Assembly: GCF_012295525.1 (NCBI RefSeq) | Contig: NZ_CP051167.1 | Span: forward strand, 1,612,001-1,676,000 | Direction: 5' to 3' | Length of the DNA stretch: 64,000 nucleotides | Source of the DNA: Oxynema aestuarii AP17 | GTDB lineage: Bacteria; Cyanobacteriota; Cyanobacteriia; Cyanobacteriales; Laspinemataceae | Shown here: positions 6,321-56,361 of the stretch, piece by piece | Numbering within the stretch: position 1 is the stretch's first letter | How the letters are laid out: every line of letters begins with the position of its first letter | The notes under the pieces: generated by a model | Databases searched by the model: none | Told to the model about the DNA's origin: nothing | The model's input: the letters and a program-made list of their open reading frames with translations, nothing else | Position numbers and translations under genes: made by a program

Positions 6321-7549
6321 TGAAATTAGTCGAAAGACATATAATCAAAAAAGGTCATAGGTTTTGGGATGAGATCGATGAGTTATCATGGCATTCCAAA
6401 AATCTCTACAATGCGGCTAATTATCTAATCCGTCAAAACTTTATTTATGGTCATGGTTACTTGAACTATAACCGGATGGATAAATTAATGCAGAAGACGG
6501 AGCAATATCGCGCTTTACCAGCTAAAGTCTCTCAACAGGTGTTACGAGGATTAGACAAAAACTGGCAATCCTTTTTTGCCGCCAATCAAGCCTACAAAGT
6601 CAACAAGGAGAAGTTTTTAGTCAACCCGAAAATTCCCAAATATAAAAACACTCAGAAAGGTCGTCAATTATTGGTGTACGTGAAACAGGCTCTAAGTAAA
6701 GTGGCTTTAAAAAAAGGTAAAATCAAATGCTCAAAAACCCAAATAGAGTTGGAGACTTCTGTAGCCGAAAAAGTAGTGGAGGTGAGAATCGTTCCTCGAT
6801 GCGATTGTTATATCATTGAGGTCATTTATGAAGAAGTAGAACCAACATTAAAATCCAATGAATGGGTCGCTAGTGTGGATTTAGGTGTAGATGTTTTAAT
6901 GGCTGTAACTTCTAATCAACCGGACTTTGTTCCTCTGTTGATAAATGGCAGACCCTTAAAAAGCCTGAATCAATTCTACAATAAACGAAAAGCCTTTCTC
7001 CAATCCCAATTAAAAGGAAATCGACCCACCTCTAAAAGAATCCAGCGTCTGACTCGATGCCGAAATCAAAAAGTGGAGAACTATCTCCATCGAGCCAGCC
7101 GTTATCTGGTCAATCTACTCGTTAACCGAAATATCACCACCTTAGTGATTGGCAAAAATGAAGGTTGGAAACAAAATGCCAAGATGGGGAAAGTGAACAA
7201 CCAAAAATTTGTGGGGATTCCTTTCAACCGTCTGATTGAAATGTTGACTTATAAATGTCAATTACTAGGGATTAAAGTGGCGATCGCTGAAGAGAGTTAT
7301 ACGAGTCAGTCGAACTTTTTCAACTTAGATCCGCTTCCGGTTTATGGAGAAACGGTAAAAGTTCCTAAGTTTACGGGAAAAAGAATTAAAAGAGGTCTTT
7401 ACCGGACTGATACAGGATTATTGTGTCAAGCGGATATCTTAGGCTCCTATAATATCTTAAGAAAAGCATTCCCAAATGCCTTTATGGGCTATGGGATAGA
7501 GAGGTGCGTAGTTCACCCAAGGAGAATTAATCTCTGGAAGCCAAAATGA
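6320..7549 (+). CDS. tnpB: TnpB, RNA-guided nuclease of the IS607 element
   Basis: I place the start at GTG 6320, which overlaps the original tnpA stop TAG by one base and gives the family N-terminus MKLVERHIIKKGHRFW (409 residues). The upstream ATG at 6263 is in frame only because of the tnpA nonsense mutation. RuvC-type acidic residues are visible: Asp187 in SVDLGVD, Glu324/325 in AIAEESYTSQ and Asp372 in QADILGSYN. The CxxC zinc ribbon of many TnpBs is absent here (TSQSNFF), as in some relatives. Family knowledge: TnpB cleaves DNA next to a TAM, guided by an RNA from the element's right end. The ORF is intact although tnpA is dead. Confidence 0.85.
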   Translation: MKLVERHIIKKGHRFWDEIDELSWHSKNLYNAANYLIRQNFIYGHGYLNYNRMDKLMQKTEQYRALPAKVSQQVLRGLDKNWQSFFAANQAYKVNKEKFLVNPKIPKYKNTQKGRQLLVYVKQALSKVALKKGKIKCSKTQIELETSVAEKVVEVRIVPRCDCYIIEVIYEEVEPTLKSNEWVASVDLGVDVLMAVTSNQPDFVPLLINGRPLKSLNQFYNKRKAFLQSQLKGNRPTSKRIQRLTRCRNQKVENYLHRASRYLVNLLVNRNITTLVIGKNEGWKQNAKMGKVNNQKFVGIPFNRLIEMLTYKCQLLGIKVAIAEESYTSQSNFFNLDPLPVYGETVKVPKFTGKRIKRGLYRTDTGLLCQADILGSYNILRKAFPNAFMGYGIERCVVHPRRINLWKPK

Positions 7550-7674
7550 AGGGGATTTTTGAAATAGAATCCATGTCTTGTTTATATCTGACTATATTTT
7601 GGTTAACTATTAGCTACTCCGTGAAAACCCCGCACTCTATGCGGAAGGCGCTCGACTTGACGGATGGCAACAGC

Positions 7675-7716
7675 AAAGGGCGAGTTCGGCAACCGATCGC
7701 CCAACTCGCCCTTTTT
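7675..7716. terminator. Rho-independent terminator hairpin
   Basis: A stem of AAAGGGCGAGTT (7675-7686) and AACTCGCCCTTT with a loop of 16 bases is followed by a T run on the plus strand (7712-7716). It sits just downstream of argZ (minus strand, stop at 7736). The longer T run is on the plus strand, but the A-rich left side allows some bidirectional use. Confidence 0.75.
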
Positions 7717-7735
7717 CACTCGTCCGCGTACTCGA

Positions 7736-9847
7736 TTAAGCCGTTTTCACCGCGCGATAAGGAGCGGTAAACGCCTCCAACTGCTTGACTAACAAACTCA
7801 AGAACAAGCCGACATCGGTCACCACGCCGACGGATTCCACCGAACCGCGATCGCTGAGTTTGGTAACCACGGCGGGGTTGATATCGACGCAGACCATTTT
7901 CACCCCGGCGGGGGTCATATTCCCCACCCCGATCGCGTGCAACATCGTCGAAAGCATCAGGATCGTATCGGCCCCTTCCAACAACTCGGCGTATTGTTCC
8001 TGAGCTTTGATGATATCGGTTTCCGTATCCGGGAGCGGACCGTCATCGCGAATGGACGCCGCCAGAGCAAATGGCACCTTGTTCTTAACGCATTCGTAAA
8101 ATACGCCCCGGGTGAGAACCCCTTGTTCCACGGCTTTGGTGATATTGCCACAGCGACGGATCGTGTTGATCGTTTTGAGGTGGTGGCGGTGTCCGCCGCG
8201 AACGGCGACCCCTCGTTTCATATCGACGCCGAGGGAAGTTCCCATCAAGGCTTGTTCGATATCGTGAACGGCGATCGCGTTCCCGCCGAGGAGCGCTTGA
8301 ACGTAACCTTCGCGGATTAATTGGGCCAAGTGGTCGCCGCCTCCGGTATGGATGACGACCGGCCCGGCGGTGACGACGACTTTACCGCCGCGATCGCGAA
8401 TTTGCCGCAACTCCCAGGCGACTTGTTCGACGACGAGTTCGACCCGCCGTTCGCTGGAAACATTGCCGGACATAAAACTAAATTCGTGTTTGTCGCGATC
8501 GCGCTGGGCCGTTTTGCGGATCGTGCGGATCCCGACGACATCGACGACGACTTCTTCCCCGACTTCGAGATCGCGCAACAGTTTGCAGCGCGCCACCGGA
8601 CCGGAGGGCGATCGGGTCACGGCGATCGCGCCGTCCATACGCTGATTTTGCACCTTCACCCAGCGACCGTCAATCCGCACCTCGGTGGGGTAAATCGTAC
8701 TCACGTAGAAGTCATCCGGTGCCACTCCCGCCTGTTCCACCGGGAGCAATTCAGCATTGCGTTCCGCTTCGGGTAAGTCTACCGCTCCCAAGGGAATTAA
8801 CTGAGACAAAATCTCTTCTAAAATGCCGTGAGAAGGGGCCGACACTTTAATTTCCGCCGTAGACGTACTTTGTCGCTGTTCCCCGAGTTGGAAGTTGAGA
8901 ACTTGGAAACTGCCCCCCCCTTCGACAATTAAATCTAACGCCCGATTGATCGCTCCGGAGTCGAGTAAGTGCCCTTCCAGGCGCACGGTTCGGCTTTCCA
9001 CGGGGCTGTTGGCGTGGATCGCCACGTCCATCGGTTCCGTAGTGCGGAGGGTTAAACATTTCGCGGCCCCTCCGGCTTTAATAAATTCGCTCAGTTGGGT
9101 TTGGATGACTTCAAAACCGACTTGTGCGAGACGATCTTTGAGGTCGTTACTGACTTTATTCATAACGATCGTCCGCTCGACGTTGACCGCATTGCAGGCA
9201 AAATTAATCGCGTCTGCCTCGCCGACGACAATGCGCTTGTGTTCGGGAACCCGCATTTCGATAATCCGATTCGAGTAAAAATCGAAAGCGGGAGGATAAT
9301 ACAGTAAGTAGCCGTTGCTTAACGGACAAAAACAGGTATCGAGGTGATAGAAGCGCTCGTCTACCAGTTGCAAGGAAACGACTTCGATATCGAGCCATTT
9401 GGCTAAATAGGAATGGGAATCGAGTTCGGAACGGAACCCGTAACCCGCCCACAACCAGCGTCCTTCGCGATCGAGCAAGGCGTCGCCCGCCCCTTCAAAG
9501 GGCAAGTCTTTGGGAAGTTCGTAAACGTTATATCCTTGTCGTTCGAACCATTCTTTGAAGTGGGGTTCTTCTCCTTGCCGTTCGGGGTGGAAAAAGCGGC
9601 TGAGGACGACGGAACTGCCCAAGACTAAGCCCGCATTGGCGGTAAAGACCATATCGGGCCAGCCCGGTTGAGGATCGACTAAATCGACGATCGCTTGCTC
9701 TTTGAGGATCGAATACAGGTTCTGCCACTGTTCGACGGCGCGATCGCGCGAGGATTTGTGAATGTTCCCCTCCATCCAGGGATTAATCACATAATCCACG
9801 TCGTAGTGTTTTGGAGAACACATTAAAATACGGATATCGGAGTTCAT
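7736..9847 (-). CDS. argZ: Arginine dihydrolase / ornithine cyclodeaminase-type bifunctional enzyme
   Basis: A protein of 703 residues, the size of ArgZ (Synechocystis) and AgrE (Anabaena). The N-terminal guanidine-group-modifying fold (about 1-275) converts arginine to ornithine, CO2 and ammonia. The expected residues are visible: Asn71 (FTANAG), His168 (FYHLD) and nucleophile Cys264 (GGAAKCLTLR). The C-terminal part (about 275-700) is the LOR/SDH-type domain that in AgrE makes proline from ornithine, with a nucleotide-binding segment near VVVTAGPVVIHTGGG. The enzyme drains arginine/cyanophycin nitrogen in an ornithine-ammonia cycle in the cytoplasm. A GTA-N8-TAC sequence lies 16 bases before the start. 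Several long antisense ORFs over it are shadows. Confidence 0.95.
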   Translation of the reverse strand: MNSDIRILMCSPKHYDVDYVINPWMEGNIHKSSRDRAVEQWQNLYSILKEQAIVDLVDPQPGWPDMVFTANAGLVLGSSVVLSRFFHPERQGEEPHFKEWFERQGYNVYELPKDLPFEGAGDALLDREGRWLWAGYGFRSELDSHSYLAKWLDIEVVSLQLVDERFYHLDTCFCPLSNGYLLYYPPAFDFYSNRIIEMRVPEHKRIVVGEADAINFACNAVNVERTIVMNKVSNDLKDRLAQVGFEVIQTQLSEFIKAGGAAKCLTLRTTEPMDVAIHANSPVESRTVRLEGHLLDSGAINRALDLIVEGGGSFQVLNFQLGEQRQSTSTAEIKVSAPSHGILEEILSQLIPLGAVDLPEAERNAELLPVEQAGVAPDDFYVSTIYPTEVRIDGRWVKVQNQRMDGAIAVTRSPSGPVARCKLLRDLEVGEEVVVDVVGIRTIRKTAQRDRDKHEFSFMSGNVSSERRVELVVEQVAWELRQIRDRGGKVVVTAGPVVIHTGGGDHLAQLIREGYVQALLGGNAIAVHDIEQALMGTSLGVDMKRGVAVRGGHRHHLKTINTIRRCGNITKAVEQGVLTRGVFYECVKNKVPFALAASIRDDGPLPDTETDIIKAQEQYAELLEGADTILMLSTMLHAIGVGNMTPAGVKMVCVDINPAVVTKLSDRGSVESVGVVTDVGLFLSLLVKQLEAFTAPYRAVKTA

Positions 9848-47513: not shown

Positions 47514-49583
47514 CTAATTCTCAGACAATACTTCAATGATTTCCGTATACTCAAAATCATTAGGACTTTTACGAACTAAAGGATAACTTGCAGATTTTAG
47601 ATGAATTTCATCTTCTTCACAATCCGCTTTTGGAGAATAATAAACCAGTATATATTCCTTACCGATACAATCCGACATTTCTCGCTCTACTTCTCCTCTC
47701 CACTGCGTTTTTGTGACTAAAACCACCAGTTGATTCGCTAATTTAGGAATACAGTTAGCGACCTGACGCCGATAAATTTCGTCCAAACTACCGAACGGCG
47801 AATCCATGACAATCGGAAACATACTGCTGTCGGGCCCCATCAGCATTCTATTTTTACTCCATTCCCGAACGCGATCGATGATTCCACCGATAAAAGATAA
47901 ACTTAAAATTTGATTTTCCCCCGTAGATGCAGCAACGGGCAATTCAATTCCGGCGGTATTTTCAACTAAAGTTAATTCGTATTTTTCGCTCAATTTCGGT
48001 AAATAAGGAGTAAAAGAAATTTGACTGAAAAGTTCTTGCACTCGCCGTTCTAATTGTAAGCGAAATTGGCGATCGATGCGCGATCGCACTTCGCTCAAAC
48101 GCCGCATTGCGTCGAGGGTAGCGGCGATACGACGTTGGGCGAGGGTTTGCTTTGTTTCGAGCATTTGATGTTTGGCAATGCGATCGCCTAAATGCTCGAT
48201 TTCAGTTTTTAAGTTTTCTCGTTTTTGTTGGTTAATTCCTTGTTGTAAGGTCAATTCTCGAATCGAGGCTTCTGTTTCGTCGAGTCGTTGCTGTAATTTT
48301 TGAATATCTTCATTTGGAAAAGCACGCAGCTTTTTTTTCAAGTCGTCGAGTTGAGTTTCAATTCGCGAAATTTCCGTGCGATGTTGATTAATTTTTACTT
48401 GTTCGCGATCGACTTCTTCCCAAAATTGGGGAATTTGTTTTTCAATTTCTTCAACTTGAGCGCTCATGCGAATGGCACTTTCTTCTACTTCTGCAATTCC
48501 CGCTTTATCCATCCAAGCGCAAACCCGTTCGTGAGAGTCCGTTCCCGCTAAAAGTTCGGAACCGCAAATACAGCGTTCTCTGGCGAGTAATTGTTCGACA
48601 AACTGCCGCTTAATTCCGGTTGGTAATTCTCCCTTTTGACGCAAGTCCTCAACGAGGGTTTGAAATTTGGCGATCGCCTCATTCAGAAATACCATGTATC
48701 CCCGAGTTGCCACGGCATTTTTAAAATTATTTCTTGCCTGAATGAGTGCGTGTCTAGTTTCCCGTTCTCGCTTTTCTAGTTCCTGCCGTTTTTCTTGCCA
48801 CTGTTTGCCATCATCGAGTTGACGCAGGCGATCGCCTAACGTCTTTTTTACCGTTTCTTGACTGTCTAACTCCTGACAAATGAGATCGTAGTCTTGCTTT
48901 AATCGTTCTCGTTCTTCACTGAGTTTTTCTTTATCTTTGAGTAACTTTTGAGTTTCGGGATCTCCAATATCTTTCAATTCTTGTTCTAAAGCATTGATAC
49001 AAGCTTTTAAATGATCGATCGCTCGATTTAAAATTTTAATCCCGAGTAATTCCTTGGTGGCTTCGGCAATTTCTGACTTTTTATCCAAACGGACAATTTG
49101 CTCGATTCGCTCTCCATCAAAAAAGAAGTATTGATGCAAACTTCCCGGCAAAATTGCACCGATAATTTCTTCCGGTTGGCGATCGGGATAATGCCAGCGT
49201 CCGTCATCTCCAGCAATTTGTAAAAATACTTCCTTATCTGTTTGCTCGATCGCCCCAAACTCATCTTTATAGGCGCGAAAAGCACGACGGACGCGATACC
49301 TCTTGTTTTCGTGGTCGAAGTCTAAAGAAACCCAGCAATCAATTGCCTGACGCGGTTTGACTTCGGCGATCGCGCGCTTGTTTACCAATTGCTCGGGAGC
49401 TGCGAATGCGGCTGAAAACTTTTCGTAAAGTACCCAAGTAAAGGCATTTAGTAAGGTCGTTTTTCCCGATCCATTATTACCGTAAATAACCGTAGTATTT
49501 TTAGAACCATTTGCCAATTTTATTTCTGGCGTTTTACCGTAGAATTGACGGAAATTATTGAGTTCGATCGACCGCAATCTCAT
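47514..49583 (-). CDS. DndD-like SMC/Rad50-type ATPase
   Basis: A protein of 689 residues. Walker A is YGNNGSGKTTLL (35-42), and the DndD-type segment FFFDGERIEQIV comes soon after. A long coiled coil (about 175-530) is broken by a Cys pair RCICGSEL (Cys338, Cys340) that could form a hook. The ABC signature is STGENQILSLSF and Walker B is FPIVMDSPFGSLDE. It resembles DndD and other DNA-repair or defence SMC ATPases. No dndB, dndC or dndE gene is nearby. It overlaps by four bases (ATGA) a 57-residue gene upstream, which suggests translational coupling. Confidence 0.87.
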   Translation of the reverse strand: MRLRSIELNNFRQFYGKTPEIKLANGSKNTTVIYGNNGSGKTTLLNAFTWVLYEKFSAAFAAPEQLVNKRAIAEVKPRQAIDCWVSLDFDHENKRYRVRRAFRAYKDEFGAIEQTDKEVFLQIAGDDGRWHYPDRQPEEIIGAILPGSLHQYFFFDGERIEQIVRLDKKSEIAEATKELLGIKILNRAIDHLKACINALEQELKDIGDPETQKLLKDKEKLSEERERLKQDYDLICQELDSQETVKKTLGDRLRQLDDGKQWQEKRQELEKRERETRHALIQARNNFKNAVATRGYMVFLNEAIAKFQTLVEDLRQKGELPTGIKRQFVEQLLARERCICGSELLAGTDSHERVCAWMDKAGIAEVEESAIRMSAQVEEIEKQIPQFWEEVDREQVKINQHRTEISRIETQLDDLKKKLRAFPNEDIQKLQQRLDETEASIRELTLQQGINQQKRENLKTEIEHLGDRIAKHQMLETKQTLAQRRIAATLDAMRRLSEVRSRIDRQFRLQLERRVQELFSQISFTPYLPKLSEKYELTLVENTAGIELPVAASTGENQILSLSFIGGIIDRVREWSKNRMLMGPDSSMFPIVMDSPFGSLDEIYRRQVANCIPKLANQLVVLVTKTQWRGEVEREMSDCIGKEYILVYYSPKADCEEDEIHLKSASYPLVRKSPNDFEYTEIIEVLSEN

Positions 49584-49753
49584 TGTACTTCTTCCTTAAT
49601 AATATTTAAAATATCTTCATTAATGTAACGGGGGCTTTTTTGATATAGCTTTGCTCTTTCGGCTTCCAAAACTCGCTCGATAATTTGGCGAATTTCTGGC
49701 GGTGCGCTCGTAATCGGTTCTTGAATGTCTTCTGAATTTTCATCACGATCCAT
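49580..49753 (-). CDS. 57-residue protein coupled to the DndD-like ATPase
   Basis: It begins MDRDENSEDIQEPITSAP and ends DILNIIKEEVQ; the stop TGA shares ATGA with the start of the ATPase gene. The protein is acidic and helical (PEIRQIIERVLEAERAKLY). It could be an adaptor or an assembly partner of the ATPase, but I do not recognise it. The overlap and helix-rich composition argue that it is real. Confidence 0.7.
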   Translation of the reverse strand: MDRDENSEDIQEPITSAPPEIRQIIERVLEAERAKLYQKSPRYINEDILNIIKEEVQ

Positions 49754-49850: not shown

Positions 49851-52800
49851 TTAACGCCAATCCCCCTGCAATGTAAAAGCAGCCCAATAATAAGGCAACT
49901 TCCACTCGGTTTCCCGTTGCATTTCTAATTGAGCCGCTCTTAATGCTGCTGTTGGCGATAATTTTTCGAGAAACATCAAACGGTAAAATCGAGACATCAT
50001 TTCTGCAGTAGCCACATCATCCACATTCCACAAACTGACGATAACCCGAGGCGCACCCGCATACATAAATCCGCGCGTTAAACCGACTAATCCCTCGCCG
50101 CGCACGGGTTTTCCCAACCCGGTCTGACAGGCGCTTAAAACGACTAAATCTGCCTGTAAATCTAAATTAAAAACATCATTTAACCGTAAGAAACCATTGC
50201 GAAAATCTCCTCGTTCGTCGAACATTGATAGCAAAATTCCCGAAAGATTGGGATTGACGTTATTCAGTAATCCGTGAGTGGCAAAATGGAGAATTTGATA
50301 GTCGCGTAATTGTGGGTCCATTGCTGCGGTACGATTGGCACCAAAATCAACTGCATAACTGCGTTGTGATGGCTCAACTAAGGTGAGAATTGCTTCAGCT
50401 TCCGTGCGCGTTCCCGGGAGTCTAGTCCAGCGTCCGATGTCCGCTTGTCGCGTCGCGCGATCTAGGGTGTATTGTTCCCAATTATTTCGATCGTTTTGCG
50501 CGATTAAACTGGGAGTTTCTAAACGGTTGTCATCAGAATTAAAGACCGGATCGGCAAAAATGGCGATCGTTTTGGGGGCAGGTTTTCGATCTTGAGTTTC
50601 TCGCCGCAAAATGGCTAAAGTTGATGCCGAAGGTAGATTAACTATTTCACGCTCGATCGCCAAAGGCAAATACTTGTTATTTCCCGAAGGATCGGGTAAA
50701 GAAATGGCTGAAAATGGAAGGTAATTTAAAATGCCATCGGCCACAATTGATAAGCGGCGATCGCCGAAGCGATCGGCGACTGGACTTAATAACATTTCAT
50801 AAACGATTCCAGAAGCTTTAGCCAAAATTTTAGGATCGCTAAAGCTTTGAATTAAATATTTACGAAACGTTTCGACCGCTTCTTCGATTTCGGCTTTTGG
50901 TGGTAGTTGATAGCTCGTTATTCCTTCTCGACCGACAGCCCATAAAAAACTACGTTTTTCGCCGAGGAAATAGTACAGTAATAGAGTATCATCGTCGATC
51001 GCTTTTTCCTGAACTTCTGTTGTAGTTAGAGGTTGGGGTTGAGTTAAATCTGCATAACTTGGGCTAACCTTGCGAATTTCGGTTTGCAGTTCTTGATATT
51101 TTTGCAGCAAATATTGACGTTCCATTTCAATTGCTGCCGCTTGCTCCGAGGTATAGTCACTATTGTAAAGCGTAACCCGACGACGTTCGATCGCATCCAA
51201 CTCTTCCTGTAACTGACGTTCGGCGATCGCCAATTCTGGATCGATGCCTTTATGAATGTCGATCTCGGCTTCTGCAAGTAAGTCTAAAAGACTGCGAGCT
51301 TTCGAGCGTTCGGCAATTTCAAAAGCTCGCATATTGTAACCTGTTGAGGGATTCCTTTCGTGTAGTTCCATTAACAGATCAATATAAAATTCATAATATT
51401 CCTGTTTGGATGCAAAAAAGTTTTGACGCTCTTCTGGAGAAACCCGAGTCATTCGTTGCTCTTCTATCAATTTTAAAGCCGTTTCAATCGAAGTTAAAGC
51501 CTCCTCAAAATTTCCGTTATTTCTCTCGATTTTGGCTATGCCAAACCAATTTTCTGCCTGATTTTCGGAGCTATGATTATTGTAAACCTGGAGAGACTTT
51601 TGGAACAACGCTAAAGCTCGACTTAAATCTCCCAATTGAGAATAAATTTGACCTAAATCAGTATATAAATAAAAACGAGAATGTTCGTTTAAATTTAATG
51701 CTCCATCGAAAACCTCTAAAGCTTTTTCTAATTCGCCCAATTCGGCATACAGCTTACCGATTTTTCTGAGATTAGAATGTAATTGTAAATTAGAATTACT
51801 TTGACGGGCAAGGCTGACCGATATTTGATAAAACTCTAAAGCGTTCTGTAAATCACCTAATTGTTGATAGACTGTAGCAATTTGAGTATAAAGATCGATT
51901 TTTATGCTATATTCTCCTTCAATCTCTTGATAAATTTCTAAAGAGCGATTGTAGACATCTAAGGCTTTTTCCCAATCTCCTAACTGCATGTAAACCGAGC
52001 CGAGATCGAATAAGGTCGTTCCCATGCGCTGACGATCGCCAATTTCACGAGAGAGGACGAGAATGCGCTCGAAAAACTCCAATGATTGCTGATAGTTTTT
52101 GAGATATAAATAAGTTTTACCAATCGTTCGTAAGGTATTGAGTTCGCCCTCAATAAACCCCGCTTTTTGGTAAACCTCTCGTGCTTCATTAAAAAATTCA
52201 AATGCTTTTTTAGCATCGCCGAGATCTGCATAATCTTCCCCAATGCGAATCAGACCGATCGCCGCGCGGTCAGTTCCCAGTTGCTCGTAAAATTGGCGAT
52301 AGAAATTAAATGATTCTAGGGCTTTTTCAGGATTCCCAATACGGTAACATAATTGGCCGATTTCTCTAAAAACTTCTCGATCTTTTAACCGTTCTTCAGC
52401 TTCAAACTCTTGAGCGTAGTTTAAACTACGATCGCAAAAATCGACAGCTTTTTCAGGTTGTTTCAAATAAGCATAAATTTCCGCGATCGCCATTGAAATA
52501 TCGAGAATTCGGCCTTCTTGGAAAGGGGCATCTAATTCTTCGATATAAATCGGTAACGCTCGATTGTAGGCGTCTAAAGCTTTTTCGAGATCCCCTAATG
52601 TCGTGTAAATTTTAGCAAGTTGATAAAAACTCCACGCCTCTCCCGGACGATCGCCATTTTCTTGAGAAACTTTATGGGATTGTGTAAATGCTTCAATGGC
52701 TCGCTCGGGTCGATTTAATTTATAGTAAAGTTCGCCAATCGTCCTCCATGTATTTGATTCGCTTTCAATGTCGTTTAATTGTTGATAAAGCGGAATTAGT

Positions 52801-54803
52801 TTTCGAGAAAATTCTAAAGCATTGGCGCGATCTTCCAATTCAAGATATTGTTCGATGATTTTTCTTAATGTGTTGGTTTGGGCTTCAAAATCTCCTGATT
52901 CTTCACCGATACTTGCAGCTTCTTTAAAAGTTAATAATGCTGTTTCGCGATCGCCTAACAGATAGTACGTTTTAGCGAGATCCATCAATGTCGAAATTTC
53001 TAATTCCGGATCGTCGAGATCTTCGTGAATTGCCGCAGCTTTTTGATAAAAAGATAAAGCTTTTTCTAGATCTCCCAAACTATCAATATAAAAATAGGCA
53101 ATGGTTTCAAGAATTTCTAATTCTCGTTGACGATCGCCCAGTTTTTGATAAATGACGAGCGCACGATCGAGGGCTTCTAATCCTTTTTCTGGTTCCCTCA
53201 AACCATAAGTATAAAGAAAGGCGATCGACTCACTCCATAACTGAGCTTCTCCTTCGAGATCCCTCGTTTCTTGATAAAGGGCGATCGCTTCTTTTAATAC
53301 AGCTTCAATTCTTTCCGGTCGATCTTGTTTTTTGTAGCGTTCGGCAATAGCGAGTAAAAAACTGGTTTCTGCTTCAAGATCGCCAACTCTTCGATAAATC
53401 GATCGCCCTTGGCTGTACGCCTCCGATTCGCGATCGCGCTGTCCGAGGCGATCGTAAATTCCAGCCGTTGCAAATAAAATTGTCGCCTGACGGTAATCAA
53501 ATTCTAAAGCTTTTTCCGGGTCTGAAAGTTGCTTGTAAAGTTCGCTCGCTGCTGCCAAAGTAATTAATTGTTGACGATAAAACTCTAATGCCTGCGGCCA
53601 GTTTTGAAGTCGAGCATAAATCAAAGCGACGCGATCGCAAATTTCCGATTCGGACACGGAATCGCCGAGTTCTCGATAGATAGTTAAAGCGCGATCGTAC
53701 AATTTTAATGCGGTTGATGCATCTCCTGAAAATTCATACCTTTCTGCTAGAGTTTGCAAAGTGAGAGCCACCCCTTGACGATCGCCGATTTCTGTAGCAA
53801 GGGTTAAGACGCGATCGTGGAAATTCAATGCTTTTTCTCGATCTTCCGACCACCATTGTTGAACGGCAAAGTTCAACAGTTTTATCTGATTTTTGACTGG
53901 GATAAATTGCTGAGAATATTGAGGATTACTGGGTTGATTTAGCGCTTCATAAATAGCGATCGCGCGGTCGAAATATTCCGAGCCACTTTGTGGCTTTTGA
54001 TATTCAATCGAGAGATATAATTCAGCTAATTTTCCCAAAACTAATGCTTGTCCGGGGCGATCGCCAATTTCTTGATAAATTGCTAGAGTTCGATCGAGGA
54101 GTCTATCGGGGCGATCGTCATTCAAGTAAGACACTCCAGCCATACTCATTAAAACAGTGGCTTCCCCTTGACGTGCGGCTATGTTCTGATTTGGAGAACC
54201 TTCGTTAATTTCCTGGAAAATAGCGAGAGAACGGCGATAAAATTCTTGCGCTCGTTCTCGATCTTTTTCACTACTTTGTAATAAATTATTCCCGCGTTGC
54301 GAGTTGATGGCTAATTCGTGAGTAAAATCGAAGTACGATTCTCGATTCCATCGCGCTGCATTTTCTACGTGAATTCCGGCAATTTGAGCGAGAATTGAGG
54401 CTTCTGCGAGGCGATTTTCCAGTTCTCGATTGAGAGTTAATGCTTCGTTATAATATTGGCGAGCGGTGTTGATAGCGCCTAGCTCTCGATACATAAAAGC
54501 TAATTTTGTTAAAGTTAACGCTGCTTGGACGCGATCGCCGGAAGTTCGCGACTGTTTGAGTTGATTTTTCCACTCTTCAATCGCCGCTATTTTAGAGGGA
54601 ATACTGGGGTATTGGGAAAGATCTATATCGAGATTTAAACTCGGGTTGATTGGATATAAAGCTAAAGTTTTCGATCCTGTATTTTGTAACTTATCCGTGT
54701 CAGAAATTGGCTGAGAAGACTGAGCTAAACTCGAACCGGATAAGAAGGTCAAACAAAACAATACAGTCAAACTTTTTTGCAAGAGTGGCGCGATCGAATT
54801 CAT
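49851..54803 (-). CDS. Giant TPR-CHAT protein (secreted caspase-like protease)
   Basis: A protein of 1650 residues. It has a signal peptide (LTVLFCLTFLSGSSLAQSSQ) and no PPC domain. From about 90 to 1130 it is almost entirely TPR repeats, some 25 units of about 40 residues. A coiled linker (about 1140-1290) leads to the CHAT domain. The predicted dyad is His1510 (FATHGL) and Cys1559 (LSACQTG), and the tail is LQGDWR. It is a distant relative of the two CHAT genes at the left end of the window. The large TPR solenoid would recognise one or more partner proteins and release or present the protease. Target unknown. Confidence 0.93.
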   Translation of the reverse strand: MNSIAPLLQKSLTVLFCLTFLSGSSLAQSSQPISDTDKLQNTGSKTLALYPINPSLNLDIDLSQYPSIPSKIAAIEEWKNQLKQSRTSGDRVQAALTLTKLAFMYRELGAINTARQYYNEALTLNRELENRLAEASILAQIAGIHVENAARWNRESYFDFTHELAINSQRGNNLLQSSEKDRERAQEFYRRSLAIFQEINEGSPNQNIAARQGEATVLMSMAGVSYLNDDRPDRLLDRTLAIYQEIGDRPGQALVLGKLAELYLSIEYQKPQSGSEYFDRAIAIYEALNQPSNPQYSQQFIPVKNQIKLLNFAVQQWWSEDREKALNFHDRVLTLATEIGDRQGVALTLQTLAERYEFSGDASTALKLYDRALTIYRELGDSVSESEICDRVALIYARLQNWPQALEFYRQQLITLAAASELYKQLSDPEKALEFDYRQATILFATAGIYDRLGQRDRESEAYSQGRSIYRRVGDLEAETSFLLAIAERYKKQDRPERIEAVLKEAIALYQETRDLEGEAQLWSESIAFLYTYGLREPEKGLEALDRALVIYQKLGDRQRELEILETIAYFYIDSLGDLEKALSFYQKAAAIHEDLDDPELEISTLMDLAKTYYLLGDRETALLTFKEAASIGEESGDFEAQTNTLRKIIEQYLELEDRANALEFSRKLIPLYQQLNDIESESNTWRTIGELYYKLNRPERAIEAFTQSHKVSQENGDRPGEAWSFYQLAKIYTTLGDLEKALDAYNRALPIYIEELDAPFQEGRILDISMAIAEIYAYLKQPEKAVDFCDRSLNYAQEFEAEERLKDREVFREIGQLCYRIGNPEKALESFNFYRQFYEQLGTDRAAIGLIRIGEDYADLGDAKKAFEFFNEAREVYQKAGFIEGELNTLRTIGKTYLYLKNYQQSLEFFERILVLSREIGDRQRMGTTLFDLGSVYMQLGDWEKALDVYNRSLEIYQEIEGEYSIKIDLYTQIATVYQQLGDLQNALEFYQISVSLARQSNSNLQLHSNLRKIGKLYAELGELEKALEVFDGALNLNEHSRFYLYTDLGQIYSQLGDLSRALALFQKSLQVYNNHSSENQAENWFGIAKIERNNGNFEEALTSIETALKLIEEQRMTRVSPEERQNFFASKQEYYEFYIDLLMELHERNPSTGYNMRAFEIAERSKARSLLDLLAEAEIDIHKGIDPELAIAERQLQEELDAIERRRVTLYNSDYTSEQAAAIEMERQYLLQKYQELQTEIRKVSPSYADLTQPQPLTTTEVQEKAIDDDTLLLYYFLGEKRSFLWAVGREGITSYQLPPKAEIEEAVETFRKYLIQSFSDPKILAKASGIVYEMLLSPVADRFGDRRLSIVADGILNYLPFSAISLPDPSGNNKYLPLAIEREIVNLPSASTLAILRRETQDRKPAPKTIAIFADPVFNSDDNRLETPSLIAQNDRNNWEQYTLDRATRQADIGRWTRLPGTRTEAEAILTLVEPSQRSYAVDFGANRTAAMDPQLRDYQILHFATHGLLNNVNPNLSGILLSMFDERGDFRNGFLRLNDVFNLDLQADLVVLSACQTGLGKPVRGEGLVGLTRGFMYAGAPRVIVSLWNVDDVATAEMMSRFYRLMFLEKLSPTAALRAAQLEMQRETEWKLPYYWAAFTLQGDWR

Positions 54804-54999: not shown

Positions 55000-56361
55000 C
55001 TACAAATCCAATAAACCGTATTTTTTTTGCAAATTTAATAACTTCAAACGGGCTTCCCCTGCGTTTTCCGCTAAATCGGCAAACTCGACAAAACGCCGCA
55101 ACTCTTTGCGGAGGAAATTGCGTTCGACTTGCATCGCATCGCGGTCTAATTCCGGCGGCATCACAATAGTATCGAACAATGTGGCCCGTTCTTTTCCCGG
55201 ATGTGGGCGCAAGATGCGGCCCCGACGTTGCACGAACTGGCGCGGATTGCTGCTACTGGCGAGAATGGCGGCGGTTCTGATGGCGGGAATGTCTACCCCT
55301 TCGTCAAGACAGCGAATCGCCACTAACCCTTGTAATTGGCCGTTTTCAAACTGTCGCCGTAGATCTTCGCGTTCGGCTAGGGGCGTTTCGGCGGTGTAGG
55401 TGTTGACCCGATAGCCGAGTTCGGAACCCAACAGGCGCGCTACGGCTTCGATTTGCCTCACGTTGTAGGTGCGCGATCGCCCGACGGTGCCATCGCCACA
55501 ATAAAATAAGGTGTGAGTTGTATCGAGACGATCGCGCATCAACCCCCGCAACGCTTCCAATTTATTAGCCGCAGACCCGATAATCCGGGCGCGCTGCATT
55601 AACAATGCGGTCAAAAACTCATTCTCCTCGATCTTGTCCTCGTCCATCAACGCCCAACCGATGCGGGTGGTCAAGCGCGCGTAGGCTCGACTTTCCGATT
55701 CGGTGAGATGAACCAAAAGGGGATAGTAAAAATATCTAACTAACGCCCCTACTCGAATCGCATCCCCTAACGTGAGTTCGGGGGGGATCACCGCCCCGAA
55801 ATAGCCGAGTAATTCATCGGTTCCGGTATCGTCAAAATAGCGTTCCGGAGTAGCCGACAGCCCCAAACGCAAGCCGACGTGACGGGGTAAACTTTCTTCT
55901 AACCTCGGCGCGCCGAGGTTGTGGGCTTCGTCGCCGACAATGAGGGTTTTGGGCGGTAAGTATTTGATTTGCGACTGAAAGCTTTCTTTTAACAGAGTTG
56001 AATTGGTGGTGATAATCGTGAGAAATGATTGACGATCGCCGCACACATTGTAGAGTTGTGTGGCGAGGGGACTAAACCAATTGCGGACGCTTTCAAAGGC
56101 GAGTAAGGGTTGCAAGCCAAATTTTTCGCACTCGCGGGCCCACTGACTGACGAGGTGGCGGTAAGGACAGACGACGAGTAAAACTTGCAAGCCAATTTTA
56201 AGATAAAGTTCGGTGGCGATCGCCAGTGCGGTAATCGTTTTGCCGCTTCCGGTCGCCATTTTCAGGGTTCCGCGCCCCTGGTGGGCGAACCAACTTTCTA
56301 CGGCCTGTTTTTGATAAGGACGCAAGGTAAGATCCCTGGGGTAGCGAGGAATTCCGGTCAC
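55000..56361 (-). CDS. DEAD/DEAH-box (SF2) helicase family protein
   Basis: A protein of 453 residues. Motif I is KMATGSGKTITALAIA (Lys41), motif II DEAH in LIVGDEAHNLGAP, motif III LSATPER, and motif VI QFVQRRGRILRPHPGKE. It has the compact two-RecA core of the XPB/RecG-like and restriction-type helicases, without a nuclease domain. The likely substrate is duplex or branched DNA. It lies 196 bases upstream of the giant TPR-CHAT gene on the same strand; a functional link is speculative. Confidence 0.9.
   Translation of the reverse strand: MTGIPRYPRDLTLRPYQKQAVESWFAHQGRGTLKMATGSGKTITALAIATELYLKIGLQVLLVVCPYRHLVSQWARECEKFGLQPLLAFESVRNWFSPLATQLYNVCGDRQSFLTIITTNSTLLKESFQSQIKYLPPKTLIVGDEAHNLGAPRLEESLPRHVGLRLGLSATPERYFDDTGTDELLGYFGAVIPPELTLGDAIRVGALVRYFYYPLLVHLTESESRAYARLTTRIGWALMDEDKIEENEFLTALLMQRARIIGSAANKLEALRGLMRDRLDTTHTLFYCGDGTVGRSRTYNVRQIEAVARLLGSELGYRVNTYTAETPLAEREDLRRQFENGQLQGLVAIRCLDEGVDIPAIRTAAILASSSNPRQFVQRRGRILRPHPGKERATLFDTIVMPPELDRDAMQVERNFLRKELRRFVEFADLAENAGEARLKLLNLQKKYGLLDL

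What the first reader, a model, noticed from the sequence alone, without database searches (positions are those of the whole stretch)
47514..49753. Orphan DndD-like ATPase translationally coupled to a 57-residue protein
A gene of 57 codons overlaps the ATPase by ATGA and is too short for usual ORF thresholds. No other dnd genes are present. SMC-like ATPases with a small partner occur in defence systems, so this may be an undescribed two-component module.
Basis: partly seen in the sequence, partly recalled or inferred. Interest (0 to 1): 0.5.

Follow-up and report, generated by a model that had tools for sequence, protein, structure and literature searches.

The report
Cyanobacterial PbeB-PbeC pair, not orphan
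The small protein and its neighbouring ATPase look like two of the four parts of a known kind of DNA-guarding system that goes with sulfur-modified DNA, and most sampled genomes of this cyanobacterial order keep all the parts, sometimes scattered around the chromosome, so their DNA sulfur modification may not work alone as had been thought.

Summary
The pair is real and under selection: ATPase 47514-49583(-) overlaps the 57-codon gene 49580-49753(-) by ATGA; the small gene lies upstream of the ATPase in 109 of 110 loci, 104 with the same overlap; median dN/dS 0.119. It is not an undescribed two-gene module. The ATPase is a CxC (Zn-hook) ABC ATPase, PbeC-like: CxC in 110 of 110, separate from DndD in a tree. 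The small gene sits where pbeB sits and matches two haloarchaeal proteins in that position. "No other dnd genes" is wrong: the PT-system helicase TIGR04095 (PbeA-like, lacking the HKD nuclease half) is in the window at 55000-56361(-), beyond an inserted CHAT-TPR gene; dnd_assoc_4 (PbeD position) and dndBCDE+HNH with its own DndD lie elsewhere in the genome. In 386 cyanobacteria the markers co-occur almost perfectly (ATPase/dnd_assoc_4: 92 both, 0 and 2 alone; ATPase/DndC: 89, 3 and 5), though in 22 of 56 genomes ATPase and dndC are over 20 kb apart. PT modification here, called solo in print, thus has a Pbe-like partner. Its function is inferred.

The parts
47514..49583 (-). CxC-type ABC ATPase, PbeC-like, 689 aa
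   Evidence: PADLOC PbeC PDLC02753 1037.8 bits over 1-647, with the caveat that PADLOC PbeC models also catch true DndD; CxC, Walker A, signature and Walker B conserved in 110 aligned loci; tree apart from DndD
49580..49753 (-). 57-codon gene in the pbeB position, ATGA overlap with the ATPase
   Evidence: 109 of 110 loci; dN/dS 0.119; HMM matches Natrinema and Halorhabdus plasmid proteins in the same position
48561..48572 (-). CICG (CxC) motif, residues 338-341 of the ATPase, predicted Zn-hook at the coiled-coil tip
   Evidence: both Cys in 110 of 110 loci; absent from 6 of 6 DndD compared
49458..49481 (-). Walker A GNNGSGKT, residues 35-42
55000..56361 (-). SF2 helicase, TIGR04095 / PbeA-like without the N-terminal HKD (PLD) nuclease half, 453 aa
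   Evidence: 654.2 bits; aligns to PADLOC PbeA 246-681 of 682; Pfam ResIII and Helicase_C, no PLD hit
49851..54803 (-). TPR-CHAT protein, 1650 aa, lying between the helicase and the small gene; probably an insertion, not counted as a core part
   Evidence: Pfam CHAT 223.5 bits and TPR; no similar protein among the 922 ORFs of the 80 named loci at 1e-10

Best explanation
The pair is pbeB-pbeC of a Pbe-like (CxC ABC-ATPase) module that works with the genome's phosphorothioate (PT) modification genes. Shown by sequence: a CxC ABC ATPase, a co-translated small protein, a PbeA-type SF2 helicase that has lost its HKD nuclease half, a dnd_assoc_4 protein in the PbeD position, and a separate dndBCDE locus, all in this genome and co-inherited across the order. 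Inferred: the ATPase forms a Zn-hooked, V-shaped dimer; the small protein, made in step with it, docks on the ATPase and holds or couples it; with PbeD it scans DNA, reads whether PT marks set by DndBCDE are present, and on unmarked (invading) DNA recruits the SF2 translocase to block it. With no HKD nuclease, the block is either non-cleaving or done by the HNH protein of the dnd locus. My odds: identity as a Pbe-like BC pair 0.85; function tied to PT 0.7; interference with unmarked DNA rather than chromosome upkeep 0.5.
For: Gene order helicase-small-ATPase within 1 kb in 54 of 72 named loci with at least 2.3 kb upstream held; complete HKD-helicase/small/CxC ATPase/dnd_assoc_4/HNH/DndC/DndD run in G193 and HKD-helicase/small/CxC ATPase/dnd_assoc_4/HNH with both gene junctions overlapping in G170, both with a small protein alignable to the window's; the same order in named plasmids of Pseudanabaena, Ruegeria, Halorhabdus, Natrinema and Haloprofundus. 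Small-protein HMM: Natrinema 33.9 bits, Halorhabdus 23.7, best of 200 shuffles each 9.8 and 9.3. Co-occurrence in 386 genomes. Distances of ATPase track helicase (r 0.944, n 58) and the adjacent chromosomal genes I read as ArgF (0.85, n 25) and LexA (0.681, n 25), DndC (0.711, n 28) and the DGQHR protein (0.952, n 30). Published: all four pbe genes contribute to virus resistance with dndCDEA in a haloarchaeon (PMC6459918, passages read).
Against: No function was tested. The window small protein does not match the Pfam family of CxC-system small proteins, PF20304, and profile comparison with those (E 0.18) and with type-2 triad small proteins (E 0.019, probability 2.5%) is not significant; three of five distant plasmid PbeB-position proteins score near shuffles. 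The HKD nuclease typical of PbeA is missing. dnd_assoc_4 showed no DndE/RHH match. A first ATPase-DndC comparison on 12 loci with cut DndC gave only r 0.304, p 0.06. ATPase without DndC in G070, G159, G170, and DndC without ATPase in G058, G080, G097, G211, G385.
Confidence: 0.6

Rival explanations
1. Housekeeping PT-reading rather than defence: the nuclease-less helicase, small protein, CxC ATPase and dnd_assoc_4 maintain or repair the PT-marked chromosome (for instance clearing damaged or over-oxidised PT sites), as a domesticated Pbe module.
For: 90 of 105 genomes of the order, almost all single copy; distances track neighbouring chromosomal genes; fixed place behind the genes I read as argF and lexA in 25 of 80 named loci; HKD nuclease lost: 89 of 89 over-cut-off helicases of the order have frames of 451-550 aa against 733 and 714 in G193 and G170.
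Against: The same module occurs on plasmids elsewhere and beside restriction-type genes; HKD-less helicases of 478 and 470 aa also occur on two haloarchaeal plasmids, so loss of HKD alone does not mean upkeep.
Confidence: 0.25
2. A self-standing two-component defence module of ATPase plus small protein.
For: The pair is the tightest part of the locus (104 of 110 with ATGA overlap); ATPase present without over-cut-off DndC in 3 of 92 genomes.
Against: ATPase never found without dnd_assoc_4 (0 of 92) and in 1 of 92 without the helicase; the pair is part of a longer operon in many relatives.
Confidence: 0.05
3. A second modification core: the CxC ATPase and dnd_assoc_4 act like DndD-DndE and lead DndC to another target sequence.
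For: PMC10853773 sees DndD-DndE and CxC-DndE as sister scanning pairs (sections read); tight co-occurrence with DndC.
Against: In the haloarchaeon PT modification is made by dndCDEA and pbe genes act against virus (PMC6459918, passages); helicase partner points to restriction.
Confidence: 0.08

Closest known systems
PbeABCD (haloarchaea; Xiong et al. 2019, PMC6459918)
   Same: SF2 helicase, small protein (66 aa there, 57 here), ATPase, small fourth protein (152 aa there, 156 here as trimmed), working with dnd genes
   Different: Here the helicase lacks the PLD/HKD half, a CHAT-TPR gene splits helicase from small gene, the fourth gene and the dnd genes lie megabases away, and the set is near-universal in an order instead of sporadic; activity not tested
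CxC ABC-ATPase systems (Rakesh et al. 2024, PMC10853773)
   Same: CxC motif in the ATPase, small protein next to it, helicase, occurrence beside DndD-centred systems
   Different: Small protein outside PF20304 detection; no HKD; components dispersed, so neighbourhood searches would miss the linkage
Natrinema sp. SYSU A 869 and Halorhabdus tiamatea plasmid loci
   Same: Short helicase (470 and 478 aa), small protein matching the window HMM, ATPase at 29-30% identity, then a 159-160 aa protein
   Different: Archaeal plasmids; no annotated dnd gene in the stretch shown
DndD of DndBCDE
   Same: ABC ATPase with coiled coil, DndD-model similarity
   Different: No CxC, partner of DndC; the genome has its own (L126:7491-9524)

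Membership tests
PbeABCD / CxC ABC-ATPase system | CxC-type ABC ATPase | tested here: met
   CxC in 110 of 110 aligned loci; window clade and DndD each 100/100 in a 37-row tree, with a long-branch warning for DndD/type-2 rows
PbeABCD / CxC ABC-ATPase system | small protein gene between helicase and ATPase | tested here: met
   109 of 110 loci; order intact in G193, G170 and named plasmids; in the window a CHAT gene intervenes before the helicase
PbeABCD / CxC ABC-ATPase system | small protein homologous to known ones | tested here: inconclusive
   Clear for Natrinema and Halorhabdus; not for PF20304 or other triads
PbeABCD / CxC ABC-ATPase system | SF2 helicase of PbeA type | tested here: met
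   TIGR04095 over cut-off; PADLOC PbeA 529 bits over its helicase half
PbeABCD / CxC ABC-ATPase system | HKD/PLD nuclease fused to the helicase (typical: 'vast majority' in PMC10853773, so not strictly defining) | tested here: not met
   Absent from the window helicase; a truncated HKD-helicase piece of another PbeA copy lies next to dnd_assoc_4 at L125:8671-9696
PbeABCD / CxC ABC-ATPase system | PbeD, a DndE cognate | tested here: inconclusive
PbeABCD / CxC ABC-ATPase system | pairing with PT modification genes | tested here: met
   89 of 92 ATPase genomes have DndC over cut-off; 5 DndC genomes lack the ATPase; own dnd locus
PbeABCD / CxC ABC-ATPase system | antiviral activity dependent on PT | not testable with these tools
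   needs experiment
DndD (TIGR03185) | score over the curated cut-off | tested here: not met
   179.7 against 245.85 bits
DndD (TIGR03185) | gene next to dndC | tested here: not met
   dndC is 4.5 Mb away in this genome and has its own dndD beside it

The most novel reading that the evidence does not exclude
Cyanobacterial PT modification is not a solo antioxidant mark: across a whole order it is read by a vertically inherited Pbe module without an HKD nuclease, dispersed in part of the genomes, whose smallest part (pbeB) no library searched here recognises; the module may have turned from virus interference to chromosome care.
Probability: 0.35. Interest if true: 0.75.

Novelty: new variant of a known kind. 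Interest (0 to 1): 0.5.

Why it matters
Two publications treat PT in cyanobacteria as lacking a restriction partner: PMC8569181 states that PT restriction systems are absent there and infers an antioxidant origin (passages read; [quoted passage not shown] Here 89 of 94 cyanobacterial genomes with DndC over cut-off also hold the PbeC-like ATPase. Searches by adjacency or within 10-20 kb would miss many: ATPase and dndC are more than 20 kb apart in 22 of 56 genomes where all four markers share a contig. This makes the question of what PT is for in the phylum tied to its proposed origin directly testable with gene deletions.

Tried and rejected
Rejected: orphan DndD (own DndD found; CxC). Rejected: PbeA split into HKD and helicase genes in this genome; the HKD piece next to dnd_assoc_4 is most like the HKD half of full PbeA copies elsewhere, and only 6 of 80 genomes have an HKD at 54% identity or more (G000, G197, G193, G116, G070, G170; 24 others match at 42% or less). 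Rejected: CHAT as a conserved part.

Led nowhere: PF20304 and profile comparisons of small proteins; PDB sequence searches for the ATPase and dnd_assoc_4; promoter/terminator scan, 2 promoter-like sites against 1.3 expected and no terminator; paper search for 'Sp-CxC', two unrelated hits. A first count of dispersal used 29 genomes picked by hand (13 with no two markers within 20 kb); it was biased and is replaced by all 56 genomes with the four markers on one contig: 28 fully within 20 kb, 14 with no two within 20 kb. A whole-word search for 'cyanobacteri' in PMC6459918 was meaningless and repeated (0 occurrences). PADLOC's PbeC label alone was not trusted, as the genome's true DndD scores 928.9 with a PbeC model and 772.3 with a DndD model.

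Rows dropped before the cross-table: of 105 genomes with any ATPase match, 13 were not counted as orthologue holders: G097 (only a 24% paralogue), G060 and G296 (fragments), G081, G094, G349, G365 (24% identity), and G185, G286, G289, G122, G325, G367 (E above 1e-7). The helicase set was taken at E 1e-60 or better and includes split or broken copies (G054, G159, G385); the four f31 genomes with longer helicases were left out. The DndC set includes the partial G058 and broken G385 copies, the dnd_assoc_4 set the broken G011 copy; the G268 relic was left out.

Full report
The observation. The ATPase ORF (47514-49583, minus, 689 aa) and the small ORF (49580-49753, minus, 57 codons from ATG) are as described, with an ATGA overlap. 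Pfam sees only P-loop/SMC-type domains in the ATPase, and nothing reaching a cut-off in the small protein. NCBIfam's DndD model scores 179.7 bits against a cut-off of 245.85. PADLOC calls it PbeC with 1037.8 bits over its full model. That label needs care: PADLOC's PbeC models also score this genome's true DndD at 928.9 bits, above its DndD models.

The small gene is real. A protein search of 386 cyanobacterial genomes gave 105 with a match, and a scan of named genomes gave 80 loci. In the 110 loci an HMM finds the small protein within 3 kb upstream of the ATPase in 109, 104 with the stop at +4. In the remaining one (L006, G338) it lies just after the helicase, about 16 kb from the ATPase. The HMM came from 93 of these loci, and some loci are the same genome twice. 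Median dN/dS is 0.119 over 659 pairs (the planned off-frame control gave no usable pair). The core reads PITSAPPEVRQIIERVL..EKDKLY...P..INDDILKIIKE.V.

The neighbours. In the 80 named loci an SF2 helicase lies on the same strand within 6 kb upstream in 58, within 1 kb in 54; 72 loci hold at least 2.3 kb upstream. A 156-aa protein follows in 42, and DndB-, DndC- and HNH-type genes are common. A representative helicase is TIGR04095, 'DNA phosphorothioation system restriction enzyme' (673.8 bits, cut-off 600), and the 156-aa protein TIGR04062, dnd_assoc_4 (186.9, cut-off 74.25); the others are DndC (704.5), DndB (410.2), a DGQHR protein, and an HNH protein below the cut-off of a PT-DNA restriction model (102.4 of 180).

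The window itself holds the helicase. TIGR04095 scores 654.2 bits at genome position 1667012-1668346, which is window 55012-56346(-), ORF 55000-56361. So on the minus strand the order is helicase, a 1650-aa TPR-CHAT protein, small gene, ATPase. No similar CHAT protein was found among the 922 ORFs of the 80 named loci, and in the same-family genome G229 helicase and ATPase are about 330 bases apart, so the CHAT gene looks inserted. dnd_assoc_4 lies at 6.00 Mb and DndC at 6.18 Mb. At 6.18 Mb there is a dnd locus: a DGQHR-type protein, DndB, HNH, DndC, a 677-aa DndD and DndE (the DGQHR one was placed by eye). The 'orphan' is thus neither alone nor a replacement for DndD.

What the ATPase is. CICG, the CxC signature, is at residues 338-341; both Cys are kept in 110 of 110 aligned loci, with Walker A, Q-loop, signature and Walker B. 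All 21 PbeC-type rows found by script in other loci and plasmids have CxCG; all 6 DndD rows lack it. A 37-row tree puts the cyanobacterial clade at 100/100 and DndD at 100/100; the plasmid PbeC-type proteins are not one clade, and the program warns of long branches joining DndD and the type-2 triads. PMC10853773 (sections 12 and 16 and passages read) states that PbeC is a CxC ABC ATPase, PbeB a rapidly evolving small protein, PbeA an HKD nuclease fused to an SF2 helicase, and PbeD a DndE cognate. PMC6459918 (section 10 and passages read) gives PbeB 66 aa and PbeD 152 aa; deleting pbeB, pbeC or pbeD abolished resistance, deleting pbeA left a little.

The small protein as PbeB. In G193 a 717-aa HKD-helicase, a 59-aa small gene (ATGA overlap), the CxC ATPase, dnd_assoc_4, HNH, DndC and DndD lie in one run, and in G170 HKD-helicase, small gene and ATPase all overlap, followed by dnd_assoc_4 and HNH (Pfam). 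Their small proteins align with the window's at 44-45% identity. The same order is annotated, with 'hypothetical protein' in the middle, on plasmids of Pseudanabaena, Ruegeria, Halorhabdus (an IS lies between), Haloprofundus and Natrinema; on a Rhizobium indigoferae plasmid the helicase comes last. The window-family HMM scores Natrinema 33.9 and Halorhabdus 23.7 bits, against best shuffles of 9.8 and 9.3. Ruegeria (7.0), Rhizobium (4.9) and Haloprofundus (2.8) are not clearly above shuffles: 2, 6 and 5 of 200 reach them. Against: the window protein does not match PF20304, the Pfam family for CxC-system small proteins, which does match, one just over and one under its cut-off, the small genes of second triads in L073 and L096 (no hit over cut-off in 80 genomes), and hhalign to those and to type-2 triad small proteins is not significant. 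PbeB identity therefore rests on position, on coupling and on the archaeal matches.

The missing nuclease. The window helicase matches PADLOC PbeA from position 246 on and lacks the PLD/HKD half. The 89 over-cut-off helicases of the order have frames of 451-550 aa; G193 and G170, outside the order, have 733 and 714. An HKD half at 54% identity or more is present in only 6 of 80 genomes searched: G193 and G170, the second triads of G197, G116 and G070, and this genome's truncated piece beside dnd_assoc_4. HKD loss is not unique to cyanobacteria: the Natrinema and Halorhabdus helicases are 470 and 478 aa.

Co-inheritance. In 386 genomes (table): ATPase with dnd_assoc_4 92 both, 0 ATPase only, 2 dnd_assoc_4 only; with helicase 91, 1, 3; with DndC 89, 3, 5. 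Within the order (105 genomes) the ATPase is in 90. Broken relics occur where the set is gone (helicase and DndC in G385, dnd_assoc_4 in G011 and G268). Genomes are related, so Fisher p-values overstate. Of 56 genomes with all four on one contig, 28 have all within 20 kb, 14 have no two within 20 kb, and ATPase and DndC are over 20 kb apart in 22. Distances of the ATPase follow helicase (r 0.944, n 58), the neighbouring genes I read by eye as ArgF (0.85, n 25) and LexA (0.681, n 25), dnd_assoc_4 (0.661, n 42), the DGQHR protein (0.952, n 30) and DndC (0.711, n 28; a first try on 12 loci with cut DndC gave 0.304, p 0.06). [quoted passage not shown]

Meaning. PMC8569181 (passages read) finds dnd vertically inherited in Cyanobacteriales, states that PT restriction systems are absent from cyanobacteria and infers an antioxidant role; it does not contain 'pbe'. 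PMC12707154 (passages read) calls solo modifiers most frequent there. The main texts of PMC10853773 and PMC6459918 contain 'cyanobacteri' 0 times; their supplements were not read, so the cyanobacterial genes may be listed there. Searches for this link were made; none showed it, in a library limited to open papers. NCBI's own family names already tie helicase and dnd_assoc_4 to PT. New here: the window pair as PbeBC, the order-wide co-inheritance with dnd despite dispersal, and the loss of the HKD half. The mechanism, PT-dependent interference or PT-reading upkeep, is inference.

Noticed in passing
window 49851-54803 (-): A 1650-aa TPR-CHAT protein lies between the PbeA-like helicase and the small gene, all on one strand; no similar protein among ORFs of the 80 named loci.
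   Followed up: partly
L125:8671-9696 (-), genome about 6.003 Mb: A truncated PLD/HKD-SF2 helicase (PbeA models 397 bits) follows dnd_assoc_4 and is followed by what I read by eye as a TnpB-type transposase ORF (7377-8603); it looks like the remains of a second Pbe locus.
   Followed up: partly
L073:8730-12126, L079:10712-12903, L096:10062-14049, L168:4992-8394: Second triads: full HKD-helicase, a small gene (PF20304-type in L073 and L096), ATPase, near the first triad or dnd_assoc_4.
   Followed up: partly
L163-L171: A third kind of triad (most with HKD-helicase of 683-687 aa, 52-56-aa small protein of another sequence type, CxC ATPase).
   Followed up: partly
L049, L058, L059 and 22 other named loci: Genes I read by eye as argF and lexA lie just upstream of the helicase-small-ATPase run in 25 of 80 named loci; a fixed chromosomal site beside a damage-response regulator.
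   Followed up: no
L126:11189-12175 (-): HNH protein inside the dnd locus; candidate nuclease for a module whose helicase lost its HKD half.
   Followed up: no
PADLOC-DB 2.0.0: PbeC models do not separate PbeC from DndD: the genome's DndD scores 928.9 with a PbeC model and 772.3 with a DndD model.
   Followed up: yes
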